64,000 nucleotides of DNA, from NCBI GenBank assembly GCA_035771165.1, contig JAWNZC010000327.1, positions 1,139,001-1,203,000 of the forward strand, written 5' to 3'. The stretch's first letter is position 1. Each line of letters starts with the position of its first letter. The stretch is from Paragorgia papillata (Eukaryota; Cnidaria; Anthozoa; Scleralcyonacea; Coralliidae). This document shows, piece by piece, positions 4,327 to 63,352 of the stretch. The notes beneath the pieces were generated by a model. That model searched no databases and had not been told where the DNA came from. It saw only the letters and a list, made by a program, of their open reading frames with translations. The position numbers were made by a program, and so were the translations under genes.

Positions 4327-5215
4327 AACCGATGATACCTCGACATTTCGCTAGGACGCTTACATCAAAGGTGCCGACACTGAGTCGGACTTCTGGTTAA
4401 TCCTTATTCTGTGGCTGGGCCAAGATGGCGGCCAAGAACAAATGGCCCTGGCACAGGCTGAACTATCACCACATCTGATTGGTCGAGATAACATTGGATG
4501 TTTTAGGTATTCTGATTGGTGGAAACAAGGCGGGCGGCAGGCTAACTCGCGGGCATTTGTTTATAGGGCTCAAATTATATTTTAAAATATTAAATAAATG
4601 ATACCAGAATTGCCGGCTGTTAAAAACAACTTCAAAATGAATGAAAATGTGAGGAAAGCTGGCGAAACACCCGTAAAAACGTCGGAAGAATATGTAATGA
4701 TGGGTCGTGTCGTCTCTGTGCCCTGGCTGCCATACAACGAAGTCCAAAGGACGGTAATTTAGAGTGTTTTCTAACTGATCGGGCGAACGAAAGACTTGGT
4801 GAACAAAGTGGCAAAAAGTATTTTGGCTGTGAAAGGAAAGTACACCACTGGGCAGAATTTACGTGTTTGGCCATTAAGAAGCAGACTTTTTTCAAACAAG
4901 CATTCTCGACTAAACGAAGGCTATATGTTTTTCAAAACGCTGAATTGAATCCACCAAAAGCTCACGAAAACAAATGGCCAGACAACGGCAATCCAGTTTC
5001 TTGCGAATTTGCCCGATCGGAAATGGCGGCTGTCGAGGCTCGCGAAATACGGGCTGACGACTGACCTATATATATAACTGGACTGCGTGCTCCTATTACC
5101 TTTGAGTTAGGAAAAGTGTCCCCAAAATCGTTTTCAAAATGGCGGCATTTATGGGTCCTTTTGCTAATGGTGAAGGTCGCTGACCGATACCTAAGAATCT
5201 CTAGTTCGTGTTGGA
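4327..5215. other. No gene recognised; fragment shared with 17165-17250
   Basis: Short ORFs only. The stretch at about 5108-5200, with a central AAAATGGCGGCATTTATGGG, is an inverted copy of 17165-17250 on the far side of the 10.9 kb transposon. An older inverted-repeat element may therefore enclose that insertion. Confidence 0.4.
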
Positions 5216-5364
5216 CATGTTCGGTATTTCGCTTTTGTTAAGAAAACTAAGCTATTTAGTCGGATAAACTGTACGTATGTTGTAGCCAGATGAATTATCT
5301 TTCTTCCAGTATATTTGATAGCTTCTACAGTGGTTTATTTCTCGAGGAAACATTCGGAGAAGAC
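5216..5364 (+). repeat. Paralogous copy of the transposon target (empty site)
   Basis: This stretch matches the sequence flanking the 10.9 kb element: 5419-5453 on its left and 16364 onward on its right, read as one continuous piece. Here AAACTA occurs once (5244-5249), while at the element it occurs on both sides. It therefore acts as an unoccupied reference that supports the 6-bp duplication and the exact ends. Confidence 0.75.
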
Positions 5365-5453
5365 ATTATTATACATACGGGGGAAAATTTCAAAATAGCG
5401 GCCGCTATTATGATTTGTACATGTTTGGTATTTCGGTTTTTTTAGGGAAACTA

Positions 5454-6452
5454 TACGGTGGCCCGTAAGTGCAATGCACAAAACAAAATATCAGTGCACA
5501 AACAAAAGTTCGAATGCACAACAAAATAAAGCGCAATGCACAACGACAAAATTTACCCCTAATGCACGACAAAATTTTCCCCAATGCACGACAAAATTTT
5601 CCCCAATGCACGACAAAATTTTCCCCAATGCACGACAAAATTTTCCCCAATGCACGACAAAATTATCCCCAATGCACGACAAAATGTTCGACGATGCAGG
5701 GTTGCCAGTTTGGCTTTTTTTAAGCCAAATTTCTCAAATTTGGCTTGTTTTTACAAGGTTTGGCTTGGAAAAATTTCATTTGGCTTAAAACTATTTTTTG
5801 GCTTATTTTTGGCTTTTTTTCTAAAAAATGGAAAGTCGTCTGTCTTTTCACCATATTTCAGTTTTTCATCGGTTAAAATTTGCCGCTTTGTTGTTTAGAA
5901 AGACTAATTGTTAAATCTCGGTATAGAGCAGTAGAGATTACCCAATCCGAGAGTTGGATAACCATGGGATAACTATCAACCAATCAGAAACGAATTCTTA
6001 ATTTAGAACATCGTCACTCATGCCACTGTCTTCGCAGAGGCCCGACCGCATAATTTTTCAAGTTTCAACCAATCATAATTCAAGAATTTTGATCTGTTTA
6101 AAACTTCAAGTACGGGCAAAATAAGCAAACTTTGAGTTGGAATTTTGAGTTTTTATGTCAGATAAAGTGATAAACCGATTATTCATGGGATACTTGCATA
6201 ATTATTACTGCAATTATCACTCGGGCCCAGTCCCCCACCTTAATTTTAGAGTTTGGCTTTTTTTGGCTTATTTTGAACATGCGTTTGGCTTATTTTGGCC
6301 CAGAGGACCTGGCAACCCTGCGACGATGCACTGAATGCAGAACAAAATTTACAGCAATGCACAACAAAGTTTAACCCAGTGCACAACAAAAATTAAACGA
6401 GATGCACAACAAAAAGTTCTCGGTATTTAAAAAATGGGGTTTGGGTAGGACA
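5454..6452 (+). repeat. Left terminal inverted repeat of the 10.9 kb transposon (interrupted)
   Basis: It starts with TACGGTGGCCCGTA and passes through degenerate GCACAACAAAA-type units into several near-perfect 23-bp units (CAATGCACGACAAAATTTTCCCC) at about 5558-5690. After a hAT-type insertion (5697-6320) it continues to about 6452, where the match to the right repeat ends (GGGTAGGACAA). The units give spurious overlapping reading frames on both strands that should not be annotated as genes. Arrays of short subterminal motifs often bind transposase; that role is inferred here. Confidence 0.85.
5697..6320. mobile_element. Nested hAT-type MITE, 624 bp
   Basis: The ends are CAGGGTTGCCAG and CTGGCAACCCTG, with the 8-bp duplication CGACGATG at 5689-5696 and 6321-6328. 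The right terminal repeat of the host transposon has the same region without the insertion (about 15975-16010, inverse strand), with CGACGATG once. The interior has many TTTGGCTT-like motifs and no transposase, so it is non-autonomous. Confidence 0.92.
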
Positions 6453-6584
6453 ATACGTAACAATACAGCATTGATAAGATCGCGACAGTTGGAAGTGAAA
6501 TCACTGAAAGACTGAACTGGATTCATTTGATTTTATAGTCGTTGTAGTTTAATAGAGGTAAGTTAAGTAGAACTCAGTACATGA

Positions 6585-7869
6585 ATGTTTTGTCCTTTTT
6601 GTGGTGAAACTGTGCAAGTTGCTTTCAAATATTGCCCATTTTGCGGACGTGAGTTACCGGAGTTGAGAAACGATCAAGAAGTTTTACATGGCAACGTCGA
6701 TGAAGAGCTAATTGCTGAGGGTGAGACCTGTGACGAATTGATAACACGTTATTTCAAACAGGGCTTTGCCTATCAGAAAATTCTACTGTTTCTCTCTAAA
6801 TATCACGGTATTGAGATTTCCTTACGGACACTTAATACCAAGCTTCGAATAATTGGTCTCCGAAGAAGGAACAACAACTACGACGTAAATGCCGTTCGTC
6901 ATCGTGTTCAAGAAGAGCTTGATGGTCCTGGCTGCTCAGGTGGTTATCGAGCTGTTTGGCACACCTTGCAAATGGAGGGGAAGCAAGTCCCTAGAGAAAC
7001 CGTCCGAACGCTTATAAATGAATTAGATCCTGAAGGTGTACAGGGAAGAAGAGCAAGACGCCTCCGGCGAAGAAGTTATCACACACCAGGGCCCAATCAT
7101 TCATGGCATGTAGATGGTTATGATAAGCTGAAGCCATATGGCTTTCCAATACGTGGTTGTATTGATGGCTATAGTCGGAAGGTCTTATGGTTGAAAGTAT
7201 GCAAGACAAATAATGATCCCACTGTCACAGGTCAACACTTTCTCGATGCAGTTGAAAAGTATGGTGGATGTCCAACATTATATATTGAGAACAGATAATG
7301 GTACTGAAAATGTCATTATGGCTGCTATACAGGCTTATTTTAGAAGTGGTGGTGAAGACAGTTTTGCTGGAGTCAAGGCACGTCGATATGGATCATCACC
7401 TGCTAATCAACGTATATAGTGTTGGTGGTCATTTCTACGAAAGAACCGCTCCAACTGGTGGATAAATTTCTTTAAAGACTTAGTTGAAGAAGGACACTTG
7501 AATACTGCAAATGATATGCAAAAGGAATGTCTTTGGTATTGCTTTCCCCAGCTATTGCAACAAGATTTAAATTTTGTAAAGCAACACTGGAACTCTCATT
7601 ATATTAGGAAATCAAGATTTAACACTGTTGCTGGAAGACCTGATGAACTGTACTTCCTTCCTGAATGCACAGGTGCACTAGATCATATTAAAATTGTCAC
7701 TCAAGTTAAATTTCAAGATATGTCTCAATATTGTCATGGCTATGAAGAAGAAAGTATTATCCAAGAATATTTTCAAACAGTTAAAGAAGAGCTTGGTCTG
7801 TTGCAACCTACAAATTGGAGACAAGCTCTTGCTATGTATCACACTCTTAGTGAAATTGCTCAGGGTTGA
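6585..7869 (+). pseudogene. Zinc-ribbon DDE transposase (IS3EU-like), disrupted
   Basis: Likely the transposase of the 10.9 kb element. Residues 1-24 form a zinc ribbon with cysteines at 3, 6, 17 and 20. A helix-turn-helix-like region follows at about 45-95, then an IS3-type second HTH (GGYRAVWHTL near 125) and a basic stretch (RRARRLRRR). The DDE core begins around residue 170: the first Asp is D177 in WHVDGYD and the second is the Asp of RTDNGTEN (codon 7294-7296). The reading frame shifts near 7275-7285, so D177 and the second Asp are in different frames. TAG at 7417-7419, in NQRI*CWW, falls 41 codons after the second Asp, where IS3-like enzymes place the catalytic Glu. The downstream frame stays open to TGA at 7867-7869. 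Two lesions make this copy inactive as read, unless they are sequencing errors. Confidence 0.85.
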
Positions 7870-8352
7870 GTTATATCTTCATTGTGATGTAACTGCTAAC
7901 ACAGCATTTAATTTTAATTATACTGGATAACCCTATCAGTTATAATTAAACTGTTTTCCTTGGGAGTCCAATAAGTAAGGGCTATCCCTTATTGGTCTAG
8001 TGCTGCTACTGAAAGAAACCGAAGTACCCATAGGAAACCTGACTGCGTATTTGGTAAAATGAAACTGGAAGCAATCTCCTAAGCAAAAATTAGCTTTAAT
8101 TTTAATCTTGTAACATCATCGAGCAGAAATTGGGTTGCAGAGGTGAAAAGCATGTGTGCTAACCAATGTGCTCCCTAGTAACCAACATCCTCAGCTTTCC
8201 TATCCAAGAAATATACTGGGGGTGTTGGTAGCACAGTGGTTAGTGCATAAGCACAGTATGAGTGTACATATATATACTGTACATATACAAATGATTTCTT
8301 ATGATATTAATGTTACTACTCTGAGTTTTATGCACAAAGCCACTGTTGGGTA
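7870..8352. other. Non-coding, with a tRNA-like SINE motif
   Basis: No gene. GGTAGCACAGTGGTTAGTGC at about 8227-8246 resembles the box A region of a tRNA-derived SINE, but the element borders are unclear. Confidence 0.4.
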
Positions 8353-8501
8353 CAGTAAAAACCCGCTAACAAGAACCTACATTTTTACCAAATCAGCCTG
8401 GGATAGGTTCTCATATTCTTATATATTCTTATATAAATAAATTCTTAATTTCAGCCTGAGGTTCTTAATAGTGGTAGGTTCTTGTTGGCGGGTTTTTACT
8501 G
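8353..8501. mobile_element. Tc1/mariner-type MITE, 149 bp
   Basis: It starts CAGTAAAAACCCGC and ends with the inverse GCGGGTTTTTACTG, and is flanked by TA at 8351-8352 and 8502-8503. The inverted ends run about 27 bp with few mismatches. TA duplication and a CAGT terminus are typical of Tc1/mariner derivatives. No coding capacity. Confidence 0.8.
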
Positions 8502-8906
8502 TAATGGATATTAAGCAATATTATAACTATATACATGTAGAATGGAATAGAGGCAGACCAAAACGATGAAACTTGTGGTAGAAGGATCCAACTTGGATAT
8601 GAATGTTGCTCTTGATGTGATAGTAATAATATAATTTAATGTATTTAACAATTATAATAGACTATGAGCTCGAAATTTCTATGAGTGAGTAGTTGATGAA
8701 AGTAGAGCTTGCGTCTTTGAGTCAACTATTATATATATAAGCTTGTTGAAAAAAATTCTGAATAAAACCAATATGTATTTTGTTAAACTGCTGTTGAAAG
8801 AAGCTTTTGTATTATACAATACAGATAAAGTAGTATTCCTAAAGATCTGTTGTATGATGAAAAAAGCTCCATATACATGTATATATACATATATATATAT
8901 ATAAAG

Positions 8907-9032
8907 TTTCAAGAGGAACTTTATTTAATCTTCAATTTTACAACGTTTCGGGGTCTAGCCCCTTCTTCAGGTCCTAGGGGCTAGACCCCGAAACGTTGTA
9001 AAATTGAAGATTAAATAAAGTTCCTCTTGAAA
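8907..9032. repeat. Near-perfect palindrome with hammerhead-like motif
   Basis: Two arms of about 56 bp (8907-8962 and 8977-9032) are near-perfect inverse copies around a 14-bp centre. Each arm carries CTAGACCCCGAAACGTTG in one orientation. On the - strand it is preceded by CCTGAAGAAGGGG, a CUGANGA...GAAAC arrangement that resembles degenerate hammerheads of Penelope-like retroelements, but with A for the core U in CUGA(A). Such paired tails suggest two retroelement ends joined head to head. Function is doubtful. Confidence 0.6.
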
Positions 9033-9078
9033 ATTTATATGCTGTATTTGGAACAATTTGCTGAATGCTGGCTCTTGA

Positions 9079-9082
<4 letters not shown>

Positions 9083-9136
<54 letters not shown>
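9083..9136. repeat. (AT)n microsatellite
   Basis: Uninterrupted TA/AT dinucleotide run of more than 50 bp. It creates a spurious Tyr-Ile reading frame. Confidence 0.95.
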
Positions 9137-9137
<1 letters not shown>

Positions 9138-9139
<2 letters not shown>

Positions 9140-9293
9140 TAATCATATGATAGCGAGTACAATTAAGGATTTACATTACAAGTGATATTTGAAAATTTTG
9201 CCAAAATTGGCAAATAATTGGCATATTTGGCATAATTTTCAAATATCACGAGTAGTGTAAATCCTTAATTGTACGAGCAAAATCATATGATTA
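9138..9293. repeat. Inverted-repeat element (MITE-like)
   Basis: AATCATATGATAGCGAGTAC... with TTAAGGATTTACA and GATATTTGAAAATTTTGCCA is mirrored at 9210-9293. The arms are about 65 bp with small mismatches around a short AT-rich centre. Non-coding. Confidence 0.7.
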
Positions 9294-9713
9294 CTCATTA
9301 TAATATGCATGACAAAATTACAACACGTACGCTTCGTACTCACTCACGCCTTTAAAAACATCTTGTTTCATTACTTGACAAGAAACATTTCCACTCTGGG
9401 TGTTCTCTGTACTCATTTCAAAATATTTACATGGAATTTTTAGTTCATAGTGTACCACAAGTCGTTGGAAATGTGAAAACTTTCCAGTGCAGAAATTGGC
9501 CGCCATTTTAAATTTTATTGTCAACATCGTTCCCAGGGCCTCTATTCTTATTAATTGTACTGCAGTACAATTAATAAAATAATTGTACTCTCGGCCAATC
9601 AGAATGTAGTAATTTTATCATGCATATAATATATATATATATATATATATATAAGTGAGTTATGGTTCACGAAATGTTAGAGAGTGCTCAATACCATATA
9701 TAGATAGAGCAAA

Positions 9714-9862
9714 ATACAAAGTATAAAGTATAGTTTTACCTTAAAGTCTTCGCTACCAGAGGTTTCACCCTAAACGGGATCATGGGTGTTCTCTGTACTC
9801 ATTTAGGGTGAAACCTCTGGTAGCGAAGACTTTAAGGTAAAACTATACTTTATACTTTGTAT
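9714..9862. repeat. Long perfect hairpin
   Basis: Arms of about 61 bp (9714-9774 and 9802-9862) are perfect or near-perfect inverse copies around a 27-bp loop. Embedded in AT microsatellite. It lies just beyond the 3' end of the HECT gene and could form a very strong hairpin in its transcript if included. Confidence 0.85.
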
Positions 9863-9888
9863 ATATATATATATATATATGGTCTAGC

Positions 9889-12800
9889 TTACAGTTTGCT
9901 GAAGACACCTCCATTCATCAGAGCTGTCAGCAAATAATGTCCAATATTTCCTTCCACTGTATTCTTATTGACATACAGGTACAACATATTTGAGCAGGTC
10001 TGGGCACACGGTATATTTTTGGCATCATCGTGGACAAAGGAAATCGTGGGTTTGGGTTCAAAACCGACTGAAGGAACATCTGTAGCCCCAGTGGCAAACA
10101 TAAGAATATGGCTTGGGGTCACAAGAGGGATAAAATTCTTTTCTTTTTCAGTGAGTTGTATACCATCATCTTCTAATTCTTGCATCAGTGTTCCATCTGC
10201 AATCAGAATAAACAGAAAAATAGCATCTTAAGTCAGTTGCACTATCGGGCCACATGGATTTACACATGCAGTTACTGTACTTCAAAGTGGAGTCACTGTA
10301 CCTTCAGTAGACTTCAAGAAAGCAATGAATTTAGCCATCACAATTTCTTGTGCCTGTCTGCGATTGTGTCCCTCTGGTGCGAAATCTGGTTTAAGAATTT
10401 TTATTACTTGTTTGGTATCCAGTTTGTTATCTGGGACATACTTGAAGAGATGTTCGGCCATTCCTTTATTAGCCCGGATGAAATCTAACATCTAAAAGCA
10501 ATTTAGAAAAACAAACTAAGATGTAATCGTCAAGGTAACAAATGGTGCTCTTCATAAAATTGACTCTACTAAGTACTAACACACATGCATTTTCCTTACA
10601 TCATAATACTTTAAACCATCAAGTAATTGCTGCAACATTGATTGGCACTTTATGATAACAAAGTATTTTGTCACTTCTTCGATGAAAGTTTGTTTTCTCT
10701 CTAGTGATACAGTTGCGGATAGACCATCAATATCGTATCTCCAATCACTATCGGCCATAAATGCATTTATGTCATCTTGCGTTGTGGCCTCTTTCAACTG
10801 TAAACAAAATACAATGAATACTTTAAAATATAATAGATTTGACAATGCTAATAAGTTCCAAAAAGTACCCGGAATGATTATATTAAAACATAACTAAAGA
10901 TAATATGATAACTATACGTCAATGTGCGTATGTATTTCTATCGGCCATGTCATATTCAACGATTTGCTTTTAAGCTCAGTTTACGCTTTGAACTAGACTT
11001 GCGTCGCGTGAAGCGTCTTGAGTGAAGATGATACAGTATGTGTGCGTCTTTACATACACAATTACATTATTTCCATCGTGCGCGGATTTGCGCGACACAT
11101 GTCTTTCAAGCGTAAATTTATCTTTATGTAATATTTAAAACACGTTCTGCGAGTGTTTTGAATGGCTTTAAAAACGATCACCATTTGGTAAGTTCGTTGG
11201 CGTGGTAATTTTGAAAAATAACGTTGTCTAAGGCGAGAAAATCAAAGCTAAATTTATGTAAATCAGGATACGGTTATGATTTTTCTTTGTGTTTTCCTCA
11301 TGAATTATGAATGCATTTTTAAATCTAGTTTAATACATATTGAAATACTTTAATACATTTAATTATTTTAACATACTGTAGTTAAGTATAGTTCTGCGAC
11401 ACAACAAAACGAAGTTCTCGTTTTCTCTTTGATAATGAACTGCTTAGTGAAGCTAGATTAAATAGTAATATCACAGTGGGGTGTATCAGTTATGGGTTCA
11501 TCTGATCGCTATCGGCCTGAGAGAACTACATAGAACGACTGGATGTCACGATAACAAATGAAGCAATACAACGATCATAATATTTCATTTTTGTATACCT
11601 TGTAAAGTGAATTCCTGACGTTTCGGTCCGACACCTCATCAATTTCTGGCTTGGAATTCGCAAACCCAGCTTCAATGTATTGGCACATGGCACCGGTTAG
11701 TAGGCGTGGCAGCTCTCCGCCTTGTATGATGATGGTAGCCAACATTGTACCAACAGTCAAGAATGTGTCGGTTTGTAACGCTCTTACATTACACCTTACA
11801 ACATGTCCCTTGGGTGTGTCTATAGTATAGTATATGAAATAAAATTTATACAATCAATATTTATTGGAAAATAGCAAAATTTAGTTTCTGCAGTAACTAA
11901 TTGTCAAAATTTCTTCTCACGTAATATATTTCGGTCAGTGTGTATTTCCTTAAACTGGAGAACAACTGGGTCTTATACCTCAGTAATTTTGGTGAAGGAA
12001 AATTTCGAGTGTGGAATATATACATTATAAGACCAAACCGGGACCAGTTGCGAAAAATGCAACATCAAGGCCTTCCGGCTAGGAATTGAACCCGCGACCC
12101 TGCGATGCTAGTGCAGTGCTCTGACTCTAGTCTCTCTAATATTACTTGTAATATACCCAATTCTACTCTCGGCATTACCACATTATATATACAGAACTCG
12201 TGACCAAGCTCTTGGTAATGGCTTCCGTAGCTCAGTGGTCAGAGCACTGCATAGCATCGCAGGGTCGCGGGTTCAATTCCTAGTCGGAAGGCCTTGATTT
12301 TGCATTTTCGAAACTGGTAACTCATTTTTTTGGGTGTCTGTGTGCTTTTCACACATTTTCATGCATATTCTACACTCGAAATTTTCCTTCACCAAAATTA
12401 CCTTGAACATCCAGTTTAATCGAGTGAAATGCCTAATATTACTTGGGTTATACCTCAGCTGTTTTCCAGTTTAAGCAAGAAAAAAATCCTGTTATATCCT
12501 AAAGCACGTGACCTGTATCAGTTCAATTTCGTGTCGCCTAAGTTTACACACACGTTATATTCCCAGTGATAATAATTTAATTACCGTTTTTTCCTTAGAC
12601 TATTTGACAATATGTTATTGTTGAATTTGGTACACTGCTTTTTGTGTCACCAAAAGTGGTTTGTTTTTCACTTGTTTTCTGAATTCTGTTGTATCACAGG
12701 AGGTCCAGAAGCGCGTGTGTAAGGGGAGCCTGGCCTTCCTGAATAGTTTCCCAAATTGCTAAGTTTATGTGCAATAAACAGTACTCTTAAAGACTCTTAA

Positions 12801-13801
12801 AGTTGCAAGGTTTATTTAAGACTCTTAAAGTTGCAAGGTTTGCATCAAATTTTGTGGCAACACATTTTTATCCAATTGCTTCTCCACAATCTCCCAATTC
12901 TTATGCCTTTTTTAAGAAATTGGGAAACCCAAAGAAATATGTCATTCAAGCTTATATCAAAGAACTGACCATGCAATTACCAAGGGTGCGAAAAAATTTA
13001 TAATAATTTTACTCACTGACTAATGACCCACTGTCCTTTGAAATGGCTCCTAGAAGTAAATGGAAGAATTCTCGTCTAGGACCACCAAGATCAACAGCAT
13101 CCTCCTCGCTTTCAAAAGTTGCAAAGGTTACTTGCAACATACCAGATCCCTTTAAGAACCCCCTGCGCTTGAAGTATGGCTGTGCAGTTTGCCAAATGCT
13201 TAAGCGGCTGATCACTATACTTCGATGTTCTCCCTGCACTTTATTTTCAGCGTGTTGTTTAATTAACGACATAAAGTTTTCGCTTGACACAGCAACTGGA
13301 TCATCCTCCTCAACAGGTTCTTCTGATTGCTCGTGTTTATTCAAACTATTCTGTATGGCTTGTTGCACGGCGTCAGTTTCATCGATTCCGATTGGTCTGT
13401 GGTAAACATAAATTATGTTTAAGTTTTAAAGATGGATAATTTTGTGTAATAGTATAGACCCTTTTAATACGTATGTAGAATATGTCATTTTCACCATATG
13501 ACGTCAATTTCTTTTCAATTTTTCTTTTGTATTCTTTTCAATTTCGTTTATTGTCTTAGCTTTTGTATATTTTCAATAGAATTCAAAAGGCTGAAAATGA
13601 CGTCAAGGGTAGAAAATGACGTACTCTGCACTTATTAAAAGGGTCTATATCCTAACGGTTTAATTTCTAGACTCTTAACACTCGCATTTCTAACGTATAT
13701 CTGTAACCAACTCTGTTAGTTGAGTAACGTATACAGTTTGTAAATACTTATTTTAGTATTATCTAGGGTAAATAAAGTTTACCATATGGTCTTCCATGCT
13801 G

Positions 13802-13843
<42 letters not shown>

Positions 13844-14732
13844 CAATGTTATATCCAAGCATTACTTACAGGAAATCAGTGACAGTGTAAGGTACTAATC
13901 CAGCATCTTCAATCTCTCGATCATTGAAATTAAATTCACCTTCCATTTCCAAGTCAATCAAGGCTTCGTTGAAGAAATAGTCTTCTATTTTTGGCTCTTC
14001 TTCTTCCTCCTTTACATCACCAAGCAAATCTATGATTGGCACTGTGCCCTTTCCACCTTTTCCCTTCTTTTCCGAGACAGGACAAAGAAATAGCGTTATT
14101 CTAGAATAGGCTTTTCCAAGCCCTTCCTTGTATTTCGCCAGGGTGAAGGCCTCTGAGGATCCGGGTATGGTGCGTGCTGATCTGGCGTCCGGATAGACTA
14201 GCACATATCCACGCTCACGAGCAAAAGTACGGTCATAGTCCTCCCACTTCTTCAGGGACCTTTGTAACACCTCGTCGTAGTTCATATTCTTCAGCACTTT
14301 CACGGGGAAAGTCTTACCACGAAGTGGTTTTGCCTCACCCGCCTCGTACTCCATCAGGCCAATACTGATCAGCACTTCTTCGTTCTTTTCTGTCGCGCGT
14401 ACCTTTTTTCTTTTCGGTTCGAAATGCGACCTTCGCTCACTCTCTTTTTCTTTCATGTAAGACGCTAAACTGCCAACAGAAAGAGAAGATTTTGTCGAAG
14501 TAGGCTCAATTCTAGTTACTGTTTCCGTTCGCGCAGAGCGGGGATCGCGATCACCGCTTGAAGTTGAAGTTGAAGCTGAAGCTGCGTTGGCACCCTCACG
14601 GTTAATGCGATGATCGCTTGCAGTTGAAGTTGAAGCAACGTTAGCATCCGCACGATCAGTCTTTTTCTTTCCACAGGTTGGGCAGTAGGCAAAAGTTGCC
14701 TCCATGTTACATCCGCAAAAACAGCAAAACAT
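9889..14732 (-). CDS. Zinc-ribbon/UIM/HECT E3 ubiquitin ligase-like protein, six exons, transposon-borne
   Basis: The exons on the - strand are 14732-13870, 13396-13017, 11819-11599, 10797-10600, 10491-10302 and 10196-9889. All junctions are GT...AG, the phases agree at every intron, and the total is 2160 nt (719 residues plus TAA). Residues 1-24 are a zinc ribbon (Cys 3, 6, 17, 20). A Ser/Thr-rich linker follows, then an unassigned domain (about 100-235) and an acidic stretch. A UIM-like helix lies near 293-310 (VQQAIQNSL). The HECT domain runs from about 345: GGPRREFF in exon 2, FATGATDVP and the PCAQTCSN active-site motif in exon 6, with Cys685 the predicted ubiquitin-accepting cysteine. 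HECT ligases form a thioester with ubiquitin before passing it to substrates. The gene resembles the G2E3-like HECT genes of invertebrates and fish. It lies inside the 10.9 kb transposon, convergent to the transposase. Expression and target are unknown. Confidence 0.85.
11938..12480. mobile_element. Head-to-head pair of tRNA-derived SINEs in HECT intron 2
   Basis: The + strand copy starts at 12221 with a tRNA-like head. Its body runs through CTACACTCGAAATTTTCC to about 12480. A second copy on the - strand has its head at about 12125-12069 and a body with the same CACTCGAAATTTTCC block, reaching about 11940. The two bodies are about 85-90% alike by eye. The arrangement makes a large imperfect palindrome in the intron. 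Confidence 0.75.
12221..12292 (+). other. tRNA-like SINE head (not a tRNA gene)
   Basis: Box A-like TAGCTCAGTGG and box B-like GGTTCAATTCC are spaced as in a tRNA, and the ends GCTTCCG/CGGAAGG nearly pair as an acceptor stem. The anticodon arm does not fold cleanly (8-nt loop between CTGC and GCAG) and there is no exact acceptor closure. It is therefore the pol III promoter head of a SINE rather than a functional tRNA. Confidence 0.7.
12786..12842 (+). repeat. Short tandem duplication
   Basis: The 21-bp motif GACTCTTAAAGTTGCAAGGTT occurs twice, about 31 bp apart (AAGACTCTTAAAGTTGC...). It lies in HECT intron 2. Confidence 0.7.
13453..13649. mobile_element. MITE with TA flanks in HECT intron 1
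   Basis: The ends TATAGACCCTTTTAATA and TATTAAAAGGGTCTATA are inverse. The interior has several GACGTCA-like and AAAATGACGT motifs in inverse orientation. TA flanks suggest a Tc1/mariner-type MITE. Confidence 0.7.
13802..13843. repeat. (GTT)n microsatellite
   Basis: About 14 GTT units, in HECT intron 1. Confidence 0.95.
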
Positions 14733-14939
14733 TTCTCACAAGCCTTTCGCCTGGTTTCAGATGGTTAAAAGAAGCCACACGAGCACTGAAGCTAGAGGAA
14801 AGACGTTTTGCGGATTTTTCCCCGATAAATGACTGTGCCAAAGTTCTTGCCTTTTTCGTTCGGTAGTTCTCTCAGACTTCGTTAAATATATTCCAAGTGT
14901 GCTTATATCTTGACGTAACTGTGGTTAGAGTTACTCAGC

Positions 14940-15410
14940 AGATTTATTTCTCTTGCGCAAATAAACGTGATTGTTGTGAGATATTTCTCTTGCGTAAATT
15001 AATAAATGTGCAGTCACGGTTGATAACGTATTTCTCTTGCGTAAACAAATGCGCAGTCTGATTGTTGTTGTAAAATATGTTTTTCTCGTGCGTAAACAAA
15101 TGCGCAGTCATGGTTGTTGTGGAATATGTATTTCTCTTGCGTAAGCAAACGCGCAGTCTGATTGTTGTTGTGGAATATGTTTTTCTCGTGCGTAAAGAAA
15201 TGCGCAGTCATGGTTGTTGTGGAATATGTATTTCTCTTGCGTAAGCAAACGCGCAGTCTGATTGTTGTTGTGAAATATGTTTTTCTCGTGCGTAAACAAA
15301 TGCGCAGTCATGGTTGTTGTGGAATATGTATTTCTCTTGCGTAAGCAAACGCGCAGTCTGATTGTTGTTGTGAAATATGTTTTTCTCTTGCGTATAAGCA
15401 AACGCGCAGT
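14940..15410. repeat. ~60-bp minisatellite with alternating 120-bp period
   Basis: Units read GCGCAGTC(T/A)...GTTGTTGT...ATATG(T)TTTTCTC(G/T)TGCGTAA. Two variants, one with CAGTCTGATTG and TTTTTCTCG and one with CAGTCATGG and ATTTCTCTTG, alternate, giving a 120-bp higher-order period. It lies directly upstream of the HECT gene start (14732), where promoter elements could sit. The frames open through it on both strands are products of the repeat. Confidence 0.85.
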
Positions 15411-15865
15411 CCGCATGGTTATTTGTAATATGGCTATAGTAATAATTTATTTCATCACAAGATAATATACATTGTACACATTGATATGAGAAAAAGATTT
15501 TTACAGTTATAAAGAAGCACTGTCATGTAATCAGTTTATTCAGTTAGGAAATTGGAGCGCATATTAATTGAAGATTGAAATGACTAATTAGTTGTGTATC
15601 AAGTACTATACTTTCCAGTATTACTGTGCCAATAAAACTATAAAAGTCTAACTTTGTGATCTATCTTCTTGGCGTCATAGCATGTTTAGTTGCTGCTACT
15701 ACAGCATTAGGCGATGTAATATAATGTATGTACGTCACTTTTTGTTTTTCAGTGATGCTTCAATGATACTAGACACGTTCCATATTATGCTGGAACGCAC
15801 GGCGTCGCCTTCACCGTTCTATTACAAATGCGAGAATCTGCGTAGTGTTCAGTTGTGCTGTTGTT

Positions 15866-16363
15866 GTCCTACCCAAACCCCATTTTTTAAAAACCGAGAA
15901 GTTTTTGTTGTGCATCTCGTTTAATTTTTGTTGTGCACTGGGTTAAACTTTGTTGTGCATTGCTGTAAATTTTGTTCTGCATTCAGTGCATCGTCGAACA
16001 TTTTGTCGTGCATTGGGGAAAATTTTGTCGTGCATTGGGGAAAATTTTGTCGTGCATTATGGAAAATTTTGTCGTGCATTGGGGTAAATTTTGTCGTGCA
16101 TCGTCGAACATTTTGTCGTGCATTGGGGAAAATTTTGTCGTGCATTGGGGAAAATTTTGTCGTGCATTATGGAAAATTTTGTCGTGCATTGGGGTAAATT
16201 TTGTCGTGCATCGGAGAAAATTTTGTCGTGCATCGGGGAAAATTTTGTCGTGCATTAGGGGTAAATTTTGTCGTTGTGCATTGCGCTTTATTTTGTTGTG
16301 CATTCGAACTTTTGTTTGTGCACTGATATTTTGTTTTGTGCATTGCACATACGGGCCACCGTA
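15866..16363 (-). repeat. Right terminal inverted repeat of the 10.9 kb transposon
   Basis: Inverse copy of 5454-6452 without the hAT insertion. It holds about a dozen units of GGGGAAAATTTTGTCGTGCATT and relatives, and ends GTGCATTGCACATACGGGCCACCGTA. The copy number of 23-bp units is larger than on the left, with a partial internal duplication (16000-16100 resembles 16100-16200). Confidence 0.88.
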
Positions 16364-16369
16364 AAACTA

Positions 16370-31393: not shown

Positions 31394-32149
31394 CTAACGG
31401 ATAGAGCTGTTGAATTGCCCTTCTAGGTCGCCCTTAGCCGTCTTCACTATAGCTCCACGTACTACGCCATCTTTTCCCTTGATAAGATCCGAAACAATCC
31501 CGAGTTTCCAGGCGTTCCTGTTCTTGTTCTCGTCTTGAACAACAACCGCTGATCCCTTTCTTGGACATGATGCTTGCTCACCTCCCGCGTTCGCGTGACG
31601 TTCGCGTAGACCTCGTACATACTCTCGAGACCATCGTCTCCACATTGCTTGCTTGCATTTCTTGAGAAACTTCGCTCGCTTGCGTAGACCCTCCTCTTTC
31701 AAATGGTGGGTTTTCAATTCAGGCAATTGAATTGGGTTGATGTTCAACATGGAATTTGGTGTCAGAACGGGCAGCTCGATATCGTCTTCGAGGTAGTTCA
31801 AGGGTCGACTGTTAAGGGCGACTTCGACGTCCAAGACGACATCCTCAAATTCACTGAGAGTGAGAATTCCATTGCCGATGGTCTTGTAAAACGCTCTTTT
31901 GAACAGACCGATGAGTCGTTCGTATTGACCTCCCCACCAGGGCGCTCGACTCAAGTTGAATCTCCACTTAATTGAACAAACAGAAAGGAATGAATTCAGA
32001 CGTTCGTCATTCTGAACTTGCTTCAGCCATTTCTCCGCCGCCTTGAACGTTGCCCCGTTATCAGAATAGATGGTCTTAGGCCGGCCTCGCCGTGCAATGA
32101 ATCTCTTCAGGCTCGATAGGAACTCGTTCACTTCCAAGGATCTTAGCAC
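31394..32149 (-). pseudogene. BEL/Pao integrase, C-terminal part
   Basis: Encodes the rear of the integrase core: IYSDNGATFKAAEKWLK has the second catalytic Asp, and WWGGQYERLIGLFK carries the Glu. A basic tail with PRKGSAVVVQDEN matches the BEL C-terminal domain. The zinc-binding N-terminus and first catalytic Asp should lie in 32150-32616, where I see no continuous frame, so the integrase is broken. Together with the upstream fragments it shows a single decayed pol. Confidence 0.85.
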
Positions 32150-32615
32150 TTCTAAATGTACAGCCCTCGTTAGGCTACATCCATAAAGAACCAGATAAGC
32201 TTTCTTGGTCGTCTTCCCTCTCGTCTGATAACGTATCGGACCTGCGAAGTCTACTCCAAGAACCTCGAACGGTGTGGACCCTTGTGTGCGGGTGACCGGC
32301 AGATTTCCAGGTGGCGGATTTTCGTAGGCTTGAAGTCGGAATCTCTTACATCCCCAACAATCGCTTCTGACTCGCTTTACTAACTGACGTAGTTTGGGAA
32401 CCCAGTAACTGATCTCTGACCCACCTGAAAAGGTGGGCTTCCTCGACTAGCTTGCGGGTAAAGAGATGGTTTCGAGGCAAAAATATCGGATATTCTCCCT
32501 CGATTCGGCCTCGGCATTCCAAAATCCCTTCGTTGTTAAGTTGCAGATTTAGTTGGACTTTCTCTTTCTTGATCTCACCATTGGTCGCCGCGTCATACTG
32601 TGCTCTCTTAATCCA

Positions 32616-34148
32616 CTAGGCGTACTGTACTTCGATCTCGTGCGTCTTTAAAGGACCGGACTCACGGCTGCTGATTGGACTTTTGCAATTGGTTATGAAT
32701 CTTCTCACCCATGCTCCGATCCTGCAACTTTTCTCTAATGCATGGGTTTCCAGAAGCTTGTCTAGTGCATCGTGACTGCGCGTTGTTGCCACGGTGAGAA
32801 CACTTTTCGTAATTTTGGCTTCGGCACTTGCTTCCGGGCTGGATTTCAGAATTACATTTGGAGGCCACTTGCTTGGGTCACTCAGCCACTCCGGACCACG
32901 TTGCCACAGACTGTTGTCCGTAACTTTTCCGCCTCGACTTCCCACGTCCGCGGGGTTTTCTTCGGTCGGTACGTAATGCCACTGTATGTGATCATGTTCT
33001 CGGATCTTCTTCACTCGATTGGCGACGAATTGGCGATACTCCCCTTGCCCGTTAATCCAACACAACGCGACAGTAGAGTCGCTCCAACAATGCACTTCAG
33101 TAATCTTGTTGCCGTTGATCGCACTTTCGACATTCGACACTAGGTTTGTTGCCATATGTCCCGCTACGAGTTCGAGACGAGGTATTGTAAGATTCCGCTT
33201 CGCCAAGCGAGATTTCGCACAAACTAGACCTTGAGTCGTACCCTCGCCTTGTTGAACAACAGCATACACCGCTGCGGCAACACCGTCCTTACTTGCATCC
33301 CCAAATGCATGGAGAGCTACAGCTGTTACATGTTGGTGAAATGGCGCTAAGGTGCGTGGTACTACACATTTCTCGAATAACTGAACTCGCCATTTTTCCC
33401 AGCGTCTCCTGATTGGCTCAGGTAATTCTCCGTCCCAAGAGAGCTTGGCCTCGCACATTTCCCGGTAGAGTAACTTCGCGACTAAGGTCGTAGGAGACAC
33501 CAGGCCAAGAGGGTCGTAGATGCTTGCTAGTTGCGAGAGCGCTTCACGCTTTGTCGATATCTTCTTCTGCTGTACGGTAACGACGCTCAAGGTGTCTTCT
33601 GATTTATCCCACGTCAGTCCGAGTAGTTTCGTATCTGTTCTGTCAGATCCAAGCTGTTCTTTCGCGTAGGTAATCTCTTCATCGTCTGCTGAATTTGGTG
33701 CATCACTCTCTAAGGCTGCAACATTCGAGTGCCATTTGTGTAGCTTAAACGTCGCGTCTTCGAACACTTCGATTGCTTGCGATCTTTTCGCTGCCACCGC
33801 TTCCGTGGTTTCTCCCCCCGTCATTAGGTCATCAACGTACAACCCATCACGAACTTCCTTCACTAACTCCGGGTACTTGAGCTCCCAACGCTTTAAATGT
33901 TCGTTGATGGCTCCCCCAAGGAGGAATGGTGAACACGTCAAGCCAAATAACGCACGGGTAAAGCGGTACACCGACAGTTCCTCACTACCTGGGCTTTTCC
34001 AAAAGAACCTTAATGCATCTCGCTCTTGCTCCTTTATTCGGATTTGCAAAAAAGCCTTTTCGATGTCGCTGGTTAGAAGAACTGGATGAAATCGTGCTCG
34101 GACGAGAATTTCCCACAGTAGATTTTGAAGTACTGGGCCAGGATCCAA
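32616..34148 (-). pseudogene. BEL/Pao reverse transcriptase and RNase H part of pol
   Basis: 510 codons open. Reverse transcriptase motifs: LLTSDIEKAFLQI (first Asp), FRFTRALFGLTCSPFLL-type palm sequence, and YVDDLMTGG, the catalytic YVDD box. RNase H follows with HAFGDASKDG, LELVAGHMA and CWSDSTVALCWI. This order with the Pao-type linker (often annotated peptidase A17) is diagnostic of BEL/Pao. It ends at a TAG where a functional pol would run on into the integrase. Its N-terminal end is out of frame with the piece at 34157-34465. Confidence 0.9.
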
Positions 34149-34156
34149 GCACTCGT

Positions 34157-34465
34157 TTAAAGATGGTTGGCTACTTGATTCCTTCGCTGACGCGTCGTAA
34201 ACGATGCGTAACTTTGTAGTTTCTGCTGACTGTTAAGTTGTTCTTGAATGATTTCATTATAACGTTCGTAGTTTCCATCACGAGTTAACTTTTTCACTAA
34301 GCTGCTAAGACGTCGACGACTACCAGCCTCGTTTGTCGGTAGAGTCGGGTGATTAGCTTTCCACGGAAGATTGGTCTCGTACCAACCTGCAGGATTCCTC
34401 ACGAGTTGCTCTTTGAAGTCTTCGTAGACCAGGGTTGTTAATAAACAGCAGTTCCGGTTTATCAA
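34157..34465 (-). pseudogene. BEL/Pao protease-RT linker fragment
   Basis: The 102-codon fragment holds the conserved VYEDFKEQL...GWYETNLPWK region that normally precedes the reverse transcriptase. Its two ends change frame relative to the neighbours, and sequence expected between the protease and this block is missing, so internal deletions accompany the frameshifts. I describe the breaks only. Confidence 0.75.
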
Positions 34466-34471
34466 CTTTGG

Positions 34472-35986
34472 TTAATTCACATTCATCTCGTAGCTTCCGT
34501 CTAAGGAGCTAATCTCCGTGTCGTAAAATTCCATTCGCGCCGTTTTTGAACCCATCAACATGTCAATGCGTTGGAATTTTGTCTCGCTCGGTTGTTTGTC
34601 AATCATCTTAATCAGCTTGGCAGACACGTAAGAGCCTCCGGCGCCAGAGTCTATTAGCGCGCGACACGTAACACCGTTTACTTTGACAACGACCACCGGG
34701 AAAACGCCGTCTCCACTTACACCGTCCGTCAACAGTTTCTTGCTGTTTCCGGATTCAGGAACCGCTTGTTCACATATAGACGAGTGATGACGTTTGTCGC
34801 AATGCAGGCAAGATGTTTTGCTAGAACATTCTGCTGCCCGGTGCCTTCTTGTAGCACAATTAAAGCACAGACCTTTCCTTGCTAGAATCTTCTTGCGTTC
34901 GCTAGCTTCGATTACTTTATCGCACTGCGTTGCTTTATGGCCAGTGTCCTCGCAATAAACGCAACCTCTTAATTTCCCTTCTTCCCCACGTGCATGAAAC
35001 AGTTTCTTACGATTGCATTCTTCGAGTTCCTTGTCGTTCGAACTAGCCGGATTTCTTTTCACCCATTGGCGCAGCGCTTCGGTTAGTTTAATAAAATCCC
35101 ACGATTCCCAGTCTGGGTCAGCGCGAACTAAATCTCCCCTAATCCCGGATAATTTTTCGAGGGTCACGGCCGTGTTTCCCCTGACATAGTCGAGCTTTTT
35201 CATTGTCTCGAGCGCCTGGACAGAATACGACAATTTTTCACTAAACTCGGCGATCTTTCGTGGATTTGCGCTTGTTATGTAGGGAAGATCTAGTATTTCT
35301 TTTACGTAGCTATTGACTATCTCGGATTCTTTCCCGTATTTATCTAACAGTATTGCTTTGGCTCGATTATAACCTTCTGTTGTGAATGGCAGAGCTTCGA
35401 CGCAACGTTTAACTTTGGGACAAAGCAACTCGCACAGGTAGGTAAATTTGCTTATAGGCGCGATAGAACTCTTATCGATGGCTTCAGTAAACTGCCCCCA
35501 AAACCTTGGCCAATCTGTAAATGACCCGTCAAACTTCGAAATGACCAGTTTTGGTAGTTTTGCTGTTTTCGTGCCAGCGAATTCCTGCGTTTCTGGTTTC
35601 GTCTTACTAAGTTCCAGTTCGTTCTGCAGTTTTAATTTCTTCTCATGCAGTTTTAACTCTAGATCAAACTGCTCCTCTTGCGCTACCATCCGTTCCGAAC
35701 GTTCCTTTTCTAACAGCCAATTCTTAAGTCGAATTACCTCGGCGTCAGCCTGTTCTAGTTTAGCTTCGACTTCATCGTTCCATTCGTTAATTTTCGAAAT
35801 GTCTTCGTCATTGGCAATTTTCGCCGTTTCGGTAGCCCGTTTACATTCACTTGTTTCGCGAACGGTTTCTTGTAGCGTCTCGAGGTGCCGTTTAATAGAT
35901 TCTCGCTTACCTGAATCCAAGATATGCCGCGTGCGATGGACTCCGATATCCAGTTGTTTCAACTTCGTGTCTAAGTTTTTCTCCAT
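34472..35986 (-). pseudogene. BEL/Pao gag and protease N-terminal part
   Basis: 504 codons from ATG at 35986. There is an N-terminal coiled-coil region rich in Glu and Lys (about 1-120), then a BEL-type gag domain (FDGSFTDWPRFWGQF, YLCELL). Three zinc-knuckle-like Cys/His clusters follow (CVYCEDTGHKATQC, CFNCATRRHRAAEC, CLHCDKRHHSSIC). The aspartic protease motif ALIDSGAGGSYVS comes last. The frame stops soon after the protease active site, where intact relatives continue into pol. Gag itself looks intact. Confidence 0.85.
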
Positions 35987-55894: not shown

Positions 55895-58702
55895 TGATTG
55901 CGCAATTATTCTGGTGATTTTTTACGTCAGTCGCGTGACCGGTCTGATGTATGCTAAATCCGCCCCTGCGCTTAGCAAGCTAAATCGACACTTTTTAGGG
56001 CCCGAAAAGCCTTCAAATAGGAGCCAAAATGACTCCTTGATTTTCCAAAACAGCCCCACGATTTTCTGAAATGGCCCTGGTTAAAAGTTGAAACAGCCCC
56101 TGTCTTTTCCATAACAGCCCTTCCATTGGGGCTAAAACTACCCTCTATATTGGAGCCAAAACAGCTCTGCTCAGCAAGCTAAATCGACGCTTTTTAGGGG
56201 TCATAATGCCTCTTAATAGGAGCCAAATTGACTCCTTGATTTTCCAAAACAGCCCCACGATTTTCTGAAATGGCCCTGGTTAAAAGTTGAAACAGCCCCT
56301 GCCTTTTCCATAACAGCCCCTGTCTGAAGCCAAAACAGCCCCTACCCTCAAAGAGCCAAATCGTCCCTTAGGGGCCGGCTTGTTATAGGTGCCATTTTGA
56401 CCCCCGTTTTGGCCCTATTTTTTGGGTCGTTTCAGCCCCTTTTCATTTACAGTGCAGCATTATGTCCCGAATTTTGCATGAGGTATTCATCTGCCTACAC
56501 AATTGCCTTATCGGTGCCATTAGCAATAAAGGAAGCAAATTGACATTTCGCGCGAGCTTCATTTTCTGACTTTGGCGAACAATGAGTTACTCGATCCAGT
56601 TTAAGCTTATTTGGCACTTTTACGTATTTATGAAGTATAAGCACTCATTGACATTTTTGTTTTAGTGAACATAAGGGCATGCCAGGAGCATTCGCTGAAG
56701 ATTTCAAAAGAATCTGGCGCCGGGGCGGTGCGGAGCGTAAATTATTTGGTATTAGTTGTGGTATATAACGTAGGGGGGTCAGAAAATTTTGAAATCTAGA
56801 GGCTCTGAAATGCAATTTCCAGCATTCTACAGAAGATATTTTTTGAAAAAATCAAGCGAGATGAAGATCTAAATGCTAAGCATTTTACGCGGTTCGATGA
56901 CTTCACGACCAAATTAACGGAAACATCCATGGAATTATATCTGTCTGAGACTGTGATGTGACTAATAGTATTGTAGCGGTACTGATGCGCTGCACGTGTG
57001 AATACAGTAGCTTGCGTAATGCGCCGACAATACATATGATCAGCGCAACGTTTTGCGAACGCAGGCGGCCAAGGTATTAGAATCGCAAAACTAATACCTT
57101 GTAGGATTACGTTGTTAGATATACAAATATTCGCATCGTTCTTACCTTTGAAGGAGGACTTATGCCTTTTTTTTTTGTTAAATATGGATTCAAGAAAACT
57201 GTTTTCCTTTCGTCAGATAAGTTCTAGTCACCATATCAAAGCTTCAAAATTGTTATAAATAATTGCTCTTTGTTTCCATATTATCGAAGTGTTGAACTCC
57301 AGTGTTGGGAGCTTTTCCTTGTGAAATAGGCGATACAGCCGATACTACATGGATGATTTATATATTGAGATGTTATATATTGTTAATGTAATGAAGTGAA
57401 AAGAATTGCAGACTTCTCGCTGCGAAATAAAAGCAGTTTTAAATCGAAATAGTAAAGCGTCTGACTTTAAAATATAAATATTGTACCACCTGTGGTGAAA
57501 TTTAACACCGAAAATCCGCGTTTCTTGTCAAGCCAAGGTATTAGTTTTGAGATTCTAATACCTTGAGGTCTAAGCCTTTCAAACACTTGTCGTTAAAGTC
57601 GCTAATTGCGCGCATCAGCGAGGACGGTACGGTACTGCGGAATTGAAATCAAACAATCAAAAACAAAGATGTTGTTTTCTTTCATCCGTCTCTGTTCTTG
57701 GAATAATTATATTATTTTACAATTCATTTCAATCTGGAGAAAAAAAGGTATTAGACTAATACCTTTAATACCTTAGCGCGCCGCCCCAGATTCTGGCGTA
57801 TAGTTCTCGAGTTATGAACTCTCAAAGTTTGCCATGGCTAGTTCGTTTTTGGAGAAATTTGGGCTCTCAGTAACAATGCCTTATGACGTACGCAGATGGA
57901 TCACTGATACTAACGCCTGTATTCTAAAAGCTCACTCACATGCACTCAATAAGTGCAACTCAACACTCAATGAGTCACCACTCACCCACACTGAGTATAC
58001 GAGACTACACTCGCTCTCCAACCATTCAATGGAATGGTTGGAGAATGAGTGTAGTCTCATACTCGGTGAGGGCGAGTGGAGACTCATTGAGTGTTGAGTT
58101 GCACTTATTAGCGAGGTTCAGATCACACTACCGCTACCGTAAATATAATTTAGCTTGTCAAATATTGTTTTTACGTTCAGTAATGGTCGCAGGTCTCAAA
58201 CCTAGTGCAAAAAGAAAGCGTTTTACGGTACTAGGATTAAAACCAACTACGACTACAGGACGAAAAAACGAACATTACACCAGCTTAATCACATTTACGG
58301 TAGCGGTAGTGGAAGTGTGATCTGAACCTCGCTATTGAGTGTGAGGGGCCACTCATTGAGTGTGAGTGACTGAGTGAGTGTAATTGAGCTTTTAGAATAC
58401 AAGCGTAAAGTCCATTGTTCTTTTGCATAGTTGTCCATTTTCGTACGTCATAAAGCATTGTTACCAAGAGCCCAAATTTCTCCAGAAATGAAATAGCCAT
58501 TACAAATTTTGAGAGTTCATAGCTCGAAGACTTGTATACGCCGGATTCTGTTGAAATTTTCGGTGAATGCTCCTGGCATGCTCCGCTGTTCATTAAAACA
58601 ATGAACGCTCTCTTATTTATAATTTTGGCCCAACATATGTGCTACAAACAACTACAAGATACTTTTTCCGTTAACAAGCGGGTGCGAAGCAATGTGGTGC
58701 AT
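55895..58702 (+). repeat. Direct repeat D2 (2.81 kb), right of the ribozyme array
   Basis: Partner of 45311-48124 with a handful of substitutions and short indels. Its right border falls exactly at the ATG codon that starts the last 16 residues of the adjoining zinc-finger gene, so gene and repeat are continuous here. It includes the same foldback element and nested insertion as D1. Confidence 0.9.
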
Positions 58703-61110: not shown

Positions 61111-61620
61111 TGACTTTTGTTTGGCAAAACAGAAATCAAGTTTAGCTCAATTTGTGCGAGAACTTGGTCTTAAATGTTCAGAACTTCTCCATAGTTTTTA
61201 GGTAACTCCTATTTCGCAATTTAATTAATGTACCGTTGAAGTTTTGAAGTTTACAGCTCAAAATTTGAATATAAGACAATTTGGCTAAAATAGCGTGACA
61301 CAGCCCATTTAAGTTTTAAAAGAGGAGGATGTACAAACTTTACAATAAGTATAACAACAGTATATTGAAGGTATATTCATTATTACTGAATAAAGGATTG
61401 TTTACCTGCTTTGTTGAGGTTGTAAATGAGGACTTTGAGGAAAACTTCTGGGCCATTCGCTTGCTTTGCAACGTTCACGTTGTGAAGATATTTCTCGAGA
61501 GTGAATCTGTGGACTGGGGTTACCTGGATATAATATAAAAACCACATTGGGTTATCAGTATCTAAAATACTGTCATATGTTGTTGCTTCACGGCCGCTTC
61601 ACCCTACTTTGTTTCCCTTC
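61110..61620. other. No gene assigned
   Basis: A 69-codon + strand frame (61329-61538) reads like possible coding sequence (LLNKGLFTCFVEVVNEDF), but I recognise no family and see no clear splice borders. Confidence 0.3.
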
Positions 61621-62549: not shown

Positions 62550-62556
62550 ACTTTAC

Positions 62557-63009: not shown

Positions 63010-63081
63010 CTATAAAGTGAGGATGACAATCAAGTTATTAGTGGTGGTGTTGATGTTAGTGCTCCTGCTACTATAGCTCTT

Positions 63082-63309: not shown

Positions 63310-63352
<43 letters not shown>

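What the first reader, a model, noticed from the sequence alone, without database searches (positions are those of the whole stretch)
5454..16363. A complete 10.9 kb IS3EU-like transposon that carries its own HECT ubiquitin-ligase gene
Seen: exact ends (TACGGTGGCCCG and inverse), 6-bp duplication AAACTA, a paralogous empty site at 5216-5364, an IS3-type DDE transposase, and an intact 719-codon zinc-ribbon/UIM/HECT gene, all between the ends. Known: HECT enzymes transfer ubiquitin through a cysteine, and DNA transposons rarely carry such genes. Inferred: the ligase is part of the element and moves with it, perhaps to modify host factors or the transposase. This would be a transposon with a built-in ubiquitin system.
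Basis: partly seen in the sequence, partly recalled or inferred. Interest (0 to 1): 0.92.

Follow-up and report, generated by a model that had tools for sequence, protein, structure and literature searches.

The report
Jumping gene with own ubiquitin ligase
A family of jumping genes in an animal that is likely a soft coral carries, between the same ends as the gene for its own DNA-moving enzyme, a gene for a protein predicted to tag other proteins with ubiquitin, and because the pair is found together in a dozen separate copies with both ends, the tagging enzyme is likely a working part of the element and would give it a handle on its host's protein control.

Summary
The element at 5454-16363 has exact TACGG..CCGTA ends, long inverted repeats, a 6-bp duplication (AAACTA) and a paralogous empty site; its HECT gene is open over six exons (719 codons). 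Two things were missed: this copy's transposase frame is broken, and a 624-bp hAT-like element sits in the left repeat. The genome settles the main doubt. Thirteen elements with paired ends hold both transposase and HECT sequence, 12 with exact target duplications; their transposases are as little as about 47% identical to the window's family. One copy (C122) is open in both genes. HECT is convergent with the transposase in 26 of 26 close pairs, the two proteins' distances track each other (Mantel r 0.97, 13 elements), and the HECT cysteine is kept in 19 of 20 elements scanned. So the ligase looks like a standing second gene of this IS3EU lineage, not a chance passenger. Its activity, targets and benefit are inferred. 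No paper in the searches made describes HECT in IS3EU, though fungal IS3EU carry TET and alpha-kinase, Ginger1 carries OTU/Ulp1, and RAG1/Chapaev a RING finger. Other species and a host-HECT control could not be tested.

The parts
5454..16363 (.). Complete IS3EU-type DNA transposon, 10,910 bp, TACGG..CCGTA ends
5448..5453 (.). Left copy of target-site duplication AAACTA
16364..16369 (.). Right copy of target-site duplication AAACTA
5454..6453 (.). Left terminal inverted repeat with 22-bp tandem repeats, split by the nested hAT-like element
   Evidence: 5454-5698 95% and 6321-6453 98% complementary to the right end
15864..16363 (.). Right terminal inverted repeat, built of repeats in 22-bp register
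5697..6320 (.). Nested 624-bp hAT-like non-autonomous element, CAGGGTTGCC..GGCAACCCTG, 8-bp duplication CGACGATG
6585..7869 (+). DDE transposase gene (zinc ribbon, PF24764 integrase core); interrupted in this copy by a frameshift near 7290 and an in-frame stop
   Evidence: open 426-codon relative in copy C122
13870..14732 (-). HECT gene exon 1: zinc ribbon and conserved N-terminal domain (predicted ubiquitin-like fold)
   Evidence: fold from a model of the relative P0001
13017..13396 (-). HECT gene exon 2
11599..11819 (-). HECT gene exon 3
10600..10797 (-). HECT gene exon 4
10302..10491 (-). HECT gene exon 5
9889..10196 (-). HECT gene exon 6: C-terminal lobe with the putative catalytic cysteine (AQTCSN)
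5211..5364 (+). Paralogous empty target site with one AAACTA
   Evidence: 134 of 154 identical, no gaps

Best explanation
This is a complete cut-and-paste DNA transposon of the IS3EU type, in a genome that is likely an octocoral's, in which a HECT ubiquitin-ligase gene stands beside the transposase gene between the same inverted ends, and the ligase is predicted to tag proteins gathered at the transposon's ends and so would help the element to move or to resist its host. Shown here: the two genes share ends and target duplications in a dozen copies, run towards each other from the two inverted repeats, and have diverged in step. Shown for the protein: a HECT domain with a conserved cysteine and, at the N-terminus, a CxxC..CxxC zinc ribbon like the transposase's. 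Inferred: the ligase takes ubiquitin from a host E2 on its cysteine; the ribbon brings it to the transposase-bound ends; there it marks the transposase complex or bound host proteins for removal, which would finish transposition or lift silencing. Also inferred: the inverted repeats serve as paired promoters for both genes.
For: Twelve elements with exact target duplications (eleven of 6 bp, one of 7 bp) and one with 5 of 6 bases matching hold both genes, HECT being cut to two exons in one of them. Copy C122 is open in both: a 426-codon transposase and a 719-codon HECT with GT..AG at all introns. In the genome lists, 26 of 40 HECT loci have a listed transposase within 12 kb and 26 of 26 are convergent; chance is about 0.4% per locus. 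Of 7 transposase loci that lacked a listed HECT and were then read in DNA, 6 do have HECT exons, convergent. HECT and transposase distances correlate at r 0.967 over 13 elements (Mantel p 0.0001; C124 left out for want of its transposase). The cysteine motif is kept in 19 of 20 HECT-bearing elements scanned. Between families HECT dN/dS is 0.10-0.145 in the 3 of 15 pairs that are not saturated, as for the transposase (0.09-0.13 in 4 of 15). Window against C122 on exact exons has 10 synonymous and 3 non-synonymous changes, ratio 0.083.
Against: No activity, expression or partner was shown. Of 97 listed transposase loci only 26 have a listed HECT within 12 kb; the lists are capped, but most of the other 71 were not read. 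One open transposase (C86:2975597) and one decayed one (C437, L025) show no HECT in the 7-8 kb read, though no second end was in view in either. Between young copies HECT ratios run from 0.16 to 0.88 in 11 pairs, transposase from 0.12 to 0.80 in 10, so many copies decay after insertion; in the C236/C194/C473b family HECT (0.54-0.88) looks looser than the transposase (0.12-0.31). The between-family ratios rest on synonymous distances of 1.05 to 1.95, near saturation. C194 has lost the cysteine, C473's HECT is frameshifted and C218 has only two exons. The trees disagree on the place of C38. The ribbons of the two proteins score hardly higher within an element than between elements (60 against 57, 7 elements). 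The structure model is poor over much of the HECT part (mean pLDDT 57.7).
Confidence: 0.77

Rival explanations
1. Anti-silencing only: the ligase works away from the transposase, degrading host factors that silence the element, as proposed for TET in fungal IS3EU.
For: In fungal IS3EU the companion genes are TET/JBP and alpha-kinase, and the authors propose that TET helps escape from methylation-based silencing (PMC12730594, passages). A predicted ubiquitin-like N-terminal domain and weak CUE-like segments could help to choose targets.
Against: No target is known. The zinc ribbon of transposase type points to a place at the transposase, though this is only a resemblance.
Confidence: 0.35
2. 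Passenger capture: the element picked up a host HECT gene by chance, as Pack-type elements do, and it has no role in the element's life.
For: DNA transposons do capture host genes (general knowledge). The window copy keeps HECT open while its transposase is broken. Young-copy dN/dS can be near neutral.
Against: Same kind of gene in the same convergent place in elements whose transposases are as little as about 47% identical; correlated divergence; low dN/dS between families where measurable; conserved cysteine.
Confidence: 0.07
3. Host HECT genes that the transposon inserted next to, or assembly joining of unrelated pieces.
For: 14 of 40 HECT loci have no listed transposase within 12 kb; Dendronephthya and Xenia relatives are annotated as ordinary genes.
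Against: HECT lies between the ends and inside the duplication in 12 elements at separate places; an empty site is present in the window; two of the 14 unpaired loci (C324, C467) are small elements that keep pieces of both genes.
Confidence: 0.03

Closest known systems
IS3EU / GingerRoot DNA transposons (Repbase superfamily; PMC10045372, passages)
   Same: TA..TA ends (TACGG..CCGTA), 6-bp target duplications, integrase-like DDE transposase without the HHCC motif
   Different: This lineage carries a HECT gene; the passages seen do not mention HECT in IS3EU. A tree against Repbase entries was not run
TET+ IS3EU of fungi (PMC12730594, passages)
   Same: TAYGG..CCRTA ends, 6-bp duplications, transposase and a second enzyme gene (alpha-kinase) in opposite orientations in one element
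   Different: The companion genes there are TET/JBP dioxygenase and alpha-kinase, not a ubiquitin ligase; hosts are fungi
Ginger1 transposons with OTU or Ulp1 protease domains (PMC2836005, passages)
   Same: DNA transposons tied to the ubiquitin/SUMO system
   Different: There a de-conjugating protease domain is part of the transposase; here a separate predicted conjugating ligase
RAG1 and Chapaev RING finger (PMC4411706, passages)
   Same: A transposase-lineage protein with ubiquitin-ligase activity (RAG1) or a RING finger (Chapaev)
   Different: RING type, part of the transposase itself; here a HECT type in its own gene

Membership tests
IS3EU superfamily | TA..TA termini, TAYGG..CCRTA | tested here: met
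   TACGG..CCGTA in the window; three copies (C405a, C194, C1) have one diverged end, TACAG. Definition from PMC10045372 and PMC12730594 passages
IS3EU superfamily | 6-bp target-site duplication | tested here: met
   Exact 6 bp in 11 of 13 gene-bearing elements with paired ends; 7 bp in C218; 5 of 6 bases in C400. Also exact 6 bp in 8 of 8 small copies with paired ends; none in C308
IS3EU superfamily | DDE transposase that falls in the IS3EU/GingerRoot clade | tested here: inconclusive
   PF24764 integrase-core match above the cut-off, PF00665 only below it; D..D..E by eye; no Repbase sequences were at hand for a tree
IS3EU superfamily | No HHCC motif ahead of the core | tested here: met
   The N-terminus is CxxC..CxxC, a zinc ribbon; by inspection only
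HECT ubiquitin ligases | HECT domain above the curated cut-off | tested here: met
   49.5 bits against 23.9 in the window; 42.5, 38.3 and 38.1 bits in three divergent elements
HECT ubiquitin ligases | Catalytic cysteine in the C-terminal lobe | tested here: met
   TC motif in 19 of 20 HECT-bearing elements scanned, window included; lost in C194; C218 lacks the exon and was not scanned
HECT ubiquitin ligases | Transfer of ubiquitin through a thioester | not testable with these tools
   Needs a biochemical assay
Pack-type gene capture | Captured gene absent from related elements and not conserved | tested here: not met
   HECT shared by divergent families, conserved and co-diverging

The most novel reading that the evidence does not exclude
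A HECT ligase is a core second protein of the IS3EU transposition cycle in octocorals, and perhaps in all animals: carried to the transposase-bound ends by a matching zinc ribbon, it marks the joined complex for ubiquitin-driven extraction, a eukaryotic counterpart of the unfoldase step that ends phage Mu transposition, or clears silencing proteins from the ends.
Probability: 0.3. Interest if true: 0.92.

Novelty: new variant of a known kind. Interest (0 to 1): 0.78.

Why it matters
The Ginger authors proposed that the ubiquitin pathway is involved in DNA transposition because de-conjugating proteases turn up in several transposons (PMC2836005, passages). A separate, conserved predicted ligase gene inside a cut-and-paste element would make the idea testable: change one cysteine and measure excision, insertion and silencing. 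It might also explain why a Xenia relative is annotated as a G2/M phase-specific E3-ligase-like gene, and it adds a new enzyme to the companion-gene slot that fungal IS3EU fill with TET and alpha-kinase.

Tried and rejected
Rejected: chance neighbours (12 elements with shared ends and duplications); passenger capture; assembly artefact. Tried without result: a PDB sequence search with the HECT protein (no match at E 0.01); a viral-contig scan with the transposase N-terminal part (3 pattern stretches, none confirmed); a fold search with the model of the Dendronephthya relative (0 matches at E 0.001; the first rows, E 0.018 and above, mix a mitoribosome chain, HECT structures and ubiquitin-like or RAS-binding folds); a test whether the zinc ribbons match better within elements (not seen). 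A Pfam HECT scan of the whole genome, meant as a control on host HECT genes, never got an answer in 22 tries. Conservation beside a transposase in other species could not be tested in DNA; the only hint is that a HECT first exon (P0126) and a transposase (P0021) are both listed with a longest contig of exactly 1,147,874 bases.

Rows dropped before counts: the 92 HECT matches were reduced by hand to 40 loci, and the 98 transposase matches. Both lists hold only best candidates, so misses there are weak evidence. The protein searches scored only the candidates sharing most words, so absence of other taxa there shows nothing.
Full report
What was checked. The ends TACGGTGGCCCG and its inverse are at 5454 and 16363, with long inverted repeats built of 22-bp units, a duplication AAACTA and an empty paralogous site at 5211-5364 to which the joined flanks align without a gap, 134 of 154 bases. 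The HECT gene has six exons on the minus strand, GT..AG introns and exactly 719 codons. Pfam gives HECT at E 6e-13. The transposase (6585-7869) matches integrase-core family PF24764 in two pieces but its frame is broken in this copy. A 624-bp hAT-like element sits in the left repeat.

Other copies, found by their ends. The window lies in a 618-Mb genome of 473 contigs; a search with the left 247 bases gave 63 matches. Copies C473 (9,899 bp, duplication GATTAT) and C122 (9,885 bp, GTTTGT) have all six HECT exons and the transposase in the same layout. In C122 both genes are open, 426 and 719 codons, with all splice sites. In C473 both are frameshifted, and C218 (15,585 bp, 7-bp duplication) keeps two HECT exons. 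Two diverged small elements, C324 and C467, keep the start of the transposase and HECT exon 1 facing each other, as internal deletions would. Six short elements carry neither gene (C339a, C339b, C296, C419, C246, C1). C308, 6.6 kb between opposed ends without a duplication, has neither gene, and C238 and C245 have end-like matches without either gene in 20 kb each. A decayed transposase at C437 (L025) has no HECT in the 7.7 kb read beside it.

A wider family. HECT and transposase searches of the genome, reduced to 40 and 97 loci, gave 26 HECT loci with a transposase within 12 kb, 26 of 26 convergent, where about 0.4% per locus is expected; 71 of the 97 transposase loci have no listed HECT. Pairs fetched from the lists show the same design in distant families: C84 (8,199 bp, TATATG), C38 (8,192, GGCTTG), C405b (8,450, GTGATT), C469 (5,103, ATATAT), C405a (4,658, CATTTC), C194 (5,932, GAAAGC) and C400 (5,196, 5 of 6 bases); for C456, C124, C236 and C443 both ends were not found in the DNA held. 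In C469, C405a, C236 and C400 the HECT part is one long open frame. Seven transposase loci without a listed HECT were then read: six have HECT exons in the expected place, among them C437 (7,654 bp, TATTTT) and C440 (7,190 bp, AGTAAC); C86:2975597 has none in 9 kb, where only a left end was found and further long frames, which look like a retrotransposon by eye, follow.

Co-inheritance and constraint. Over 13 elements the HECT and transposase distances correlate at 0.967 (Mantel p 0.0001) and the deep groupings agree; C38 is placed differently in the two trees. Between six families dN/dS is 0.145, 0.099 and 0.138 for HECT (12 of 15 pairs saturated) and 0.092 to 0.132 for the transposase (11 of 15 saturated); even the measurable pairs are near saturation. 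Window against C122, on exact exons, gives 10 synonymous and 3 non-synonymous changes, 0.083; the rougher mapping gives 0.157. Among young copies ratios run from 0.16 to 0.88 for HECT (11 pairs) and 0.12 to 0.80 for the transposase (10 pairs), as expected if many copies decay. The cysteine motif is present in 19 of 20 HECT-bearing elements scanned.

The protein. Zinc ribbon, a conserved domain of about 100 residues, a variable middle (CUE matches below the cut-off in two relatives; a UIM-like stretch in the window by recalled motif only) and HECT. A model of the Dendronephthya relative P0001 is confident in the conserved domain and part of the HECT only; the weak structural matches (E 0.018 and above) include ubiquitin-like or RAS-binding folds and HECT domains. 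The ribbon is of the kind that opens the transposase, 52% identical over 23 residues in the window, but in the 7 elements compared the pairs score hardly better within than between elements.

Relatives and host. Protein searches gave 3 HECT relatives and then, with an alignment, 23 including those 3; the named ones are Dendronephthya gigantea, Xenia and Paramuricea clavata, octocorals by taxonomy for the first and last and by recall for Xenia. The transposase has 1018 relatives; organisms named among the 120 listed are Dendronephthya, Montipora foliosa and Oculina patagonica. The host is therefore likely an octocoral; this is inferred.

How it likely works. Both genes run inward from the inverted repeats, so these likely serve as promoters for both. 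The transposase would bind the repeats. The ligase would load ubiquitin from a host E2 onto its cysteine and act on proteins at the ends. I favour action at the transposase complex because of the shared type of ribbon; degradation of silencing factors elsewhere is the main rival. All of this is inference.

What is known. IS3EU is defined by TA..TA ends and usually 6-bp duplications (PMC10045372, passages). Fungal IS3EU carry TET and alpha-kinase genes (PMC12730594, passages). A meeting report says that diverse DNA transposons harbour conserved proteins acquired from host proteins; the passage does not name HECT (PMC3520738, one passage). Ginger1 carries OTU or Ulp1 (PMC2836005, passages). RAG1 has RING ligase activity and some Chapaevs a RING finger (PMC4411706, passages). 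A survey of animal HECT genes has no word beginning with 'transpos' (PMC2837046, passages). A paper on F-box genes and transposons has no HECT in its main text (PMC12062965, passages). No paper joining HECT and IS3EU turned up in the listings; Repbase itself was not available.

Verdict. The feature is real, the ligase is very likely a standing gene of the element, and its function is open. On recounting, how the elements were chosen and the 71 unread or unlisted transposase loci were added, and the confidence was lowered by 0.01.

Noticed in passing
5697-6320: hAT-like non-autonomous element (CAGGGTTGCC..GGCAACCCTG, 8-bp duplication CGACGATG) nested in the left inverted repeat.
   Followed up: partly
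31397-35986 (-): Pao/BEL-type retroelement: DUF1759, reverse transcriptase, Pao peptidase and DUF5641 matches in three open frames.
   Followed up: partly
58655-59590 (-): C2H2 zinc-finger protein of 312 residues in one open frame.
   Followed up: partly
14945-15432: Tandem array with 50/100-bp units between the HECT start and the right inverted repeat; kept in short deletion copies of the element.
   Followed up: no
12054-12308: Inverted pair of tRNA-like stretches, SINE-like by eye, in HECT intron 2; ARAGORN calls no tRNA in the window.
   Followed up: no
61547-63859: Long low-complexity repeats giving open frames that look spurious on both strands.
   Followed up: no
P0126 and P0021 (proteins): A HECT first exon and a transposase from another assembly are listed with the same longest contig length, 1,147,874 bases, so perhaps one contig.
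   Followed up: no
L033, L035, L044: Family C236/C194/C473b: HECT looks less constrained than the transposase and C194 lost the cysteine, as if the ligase can be supplied in trans or is being lost.
   Followed up: partly
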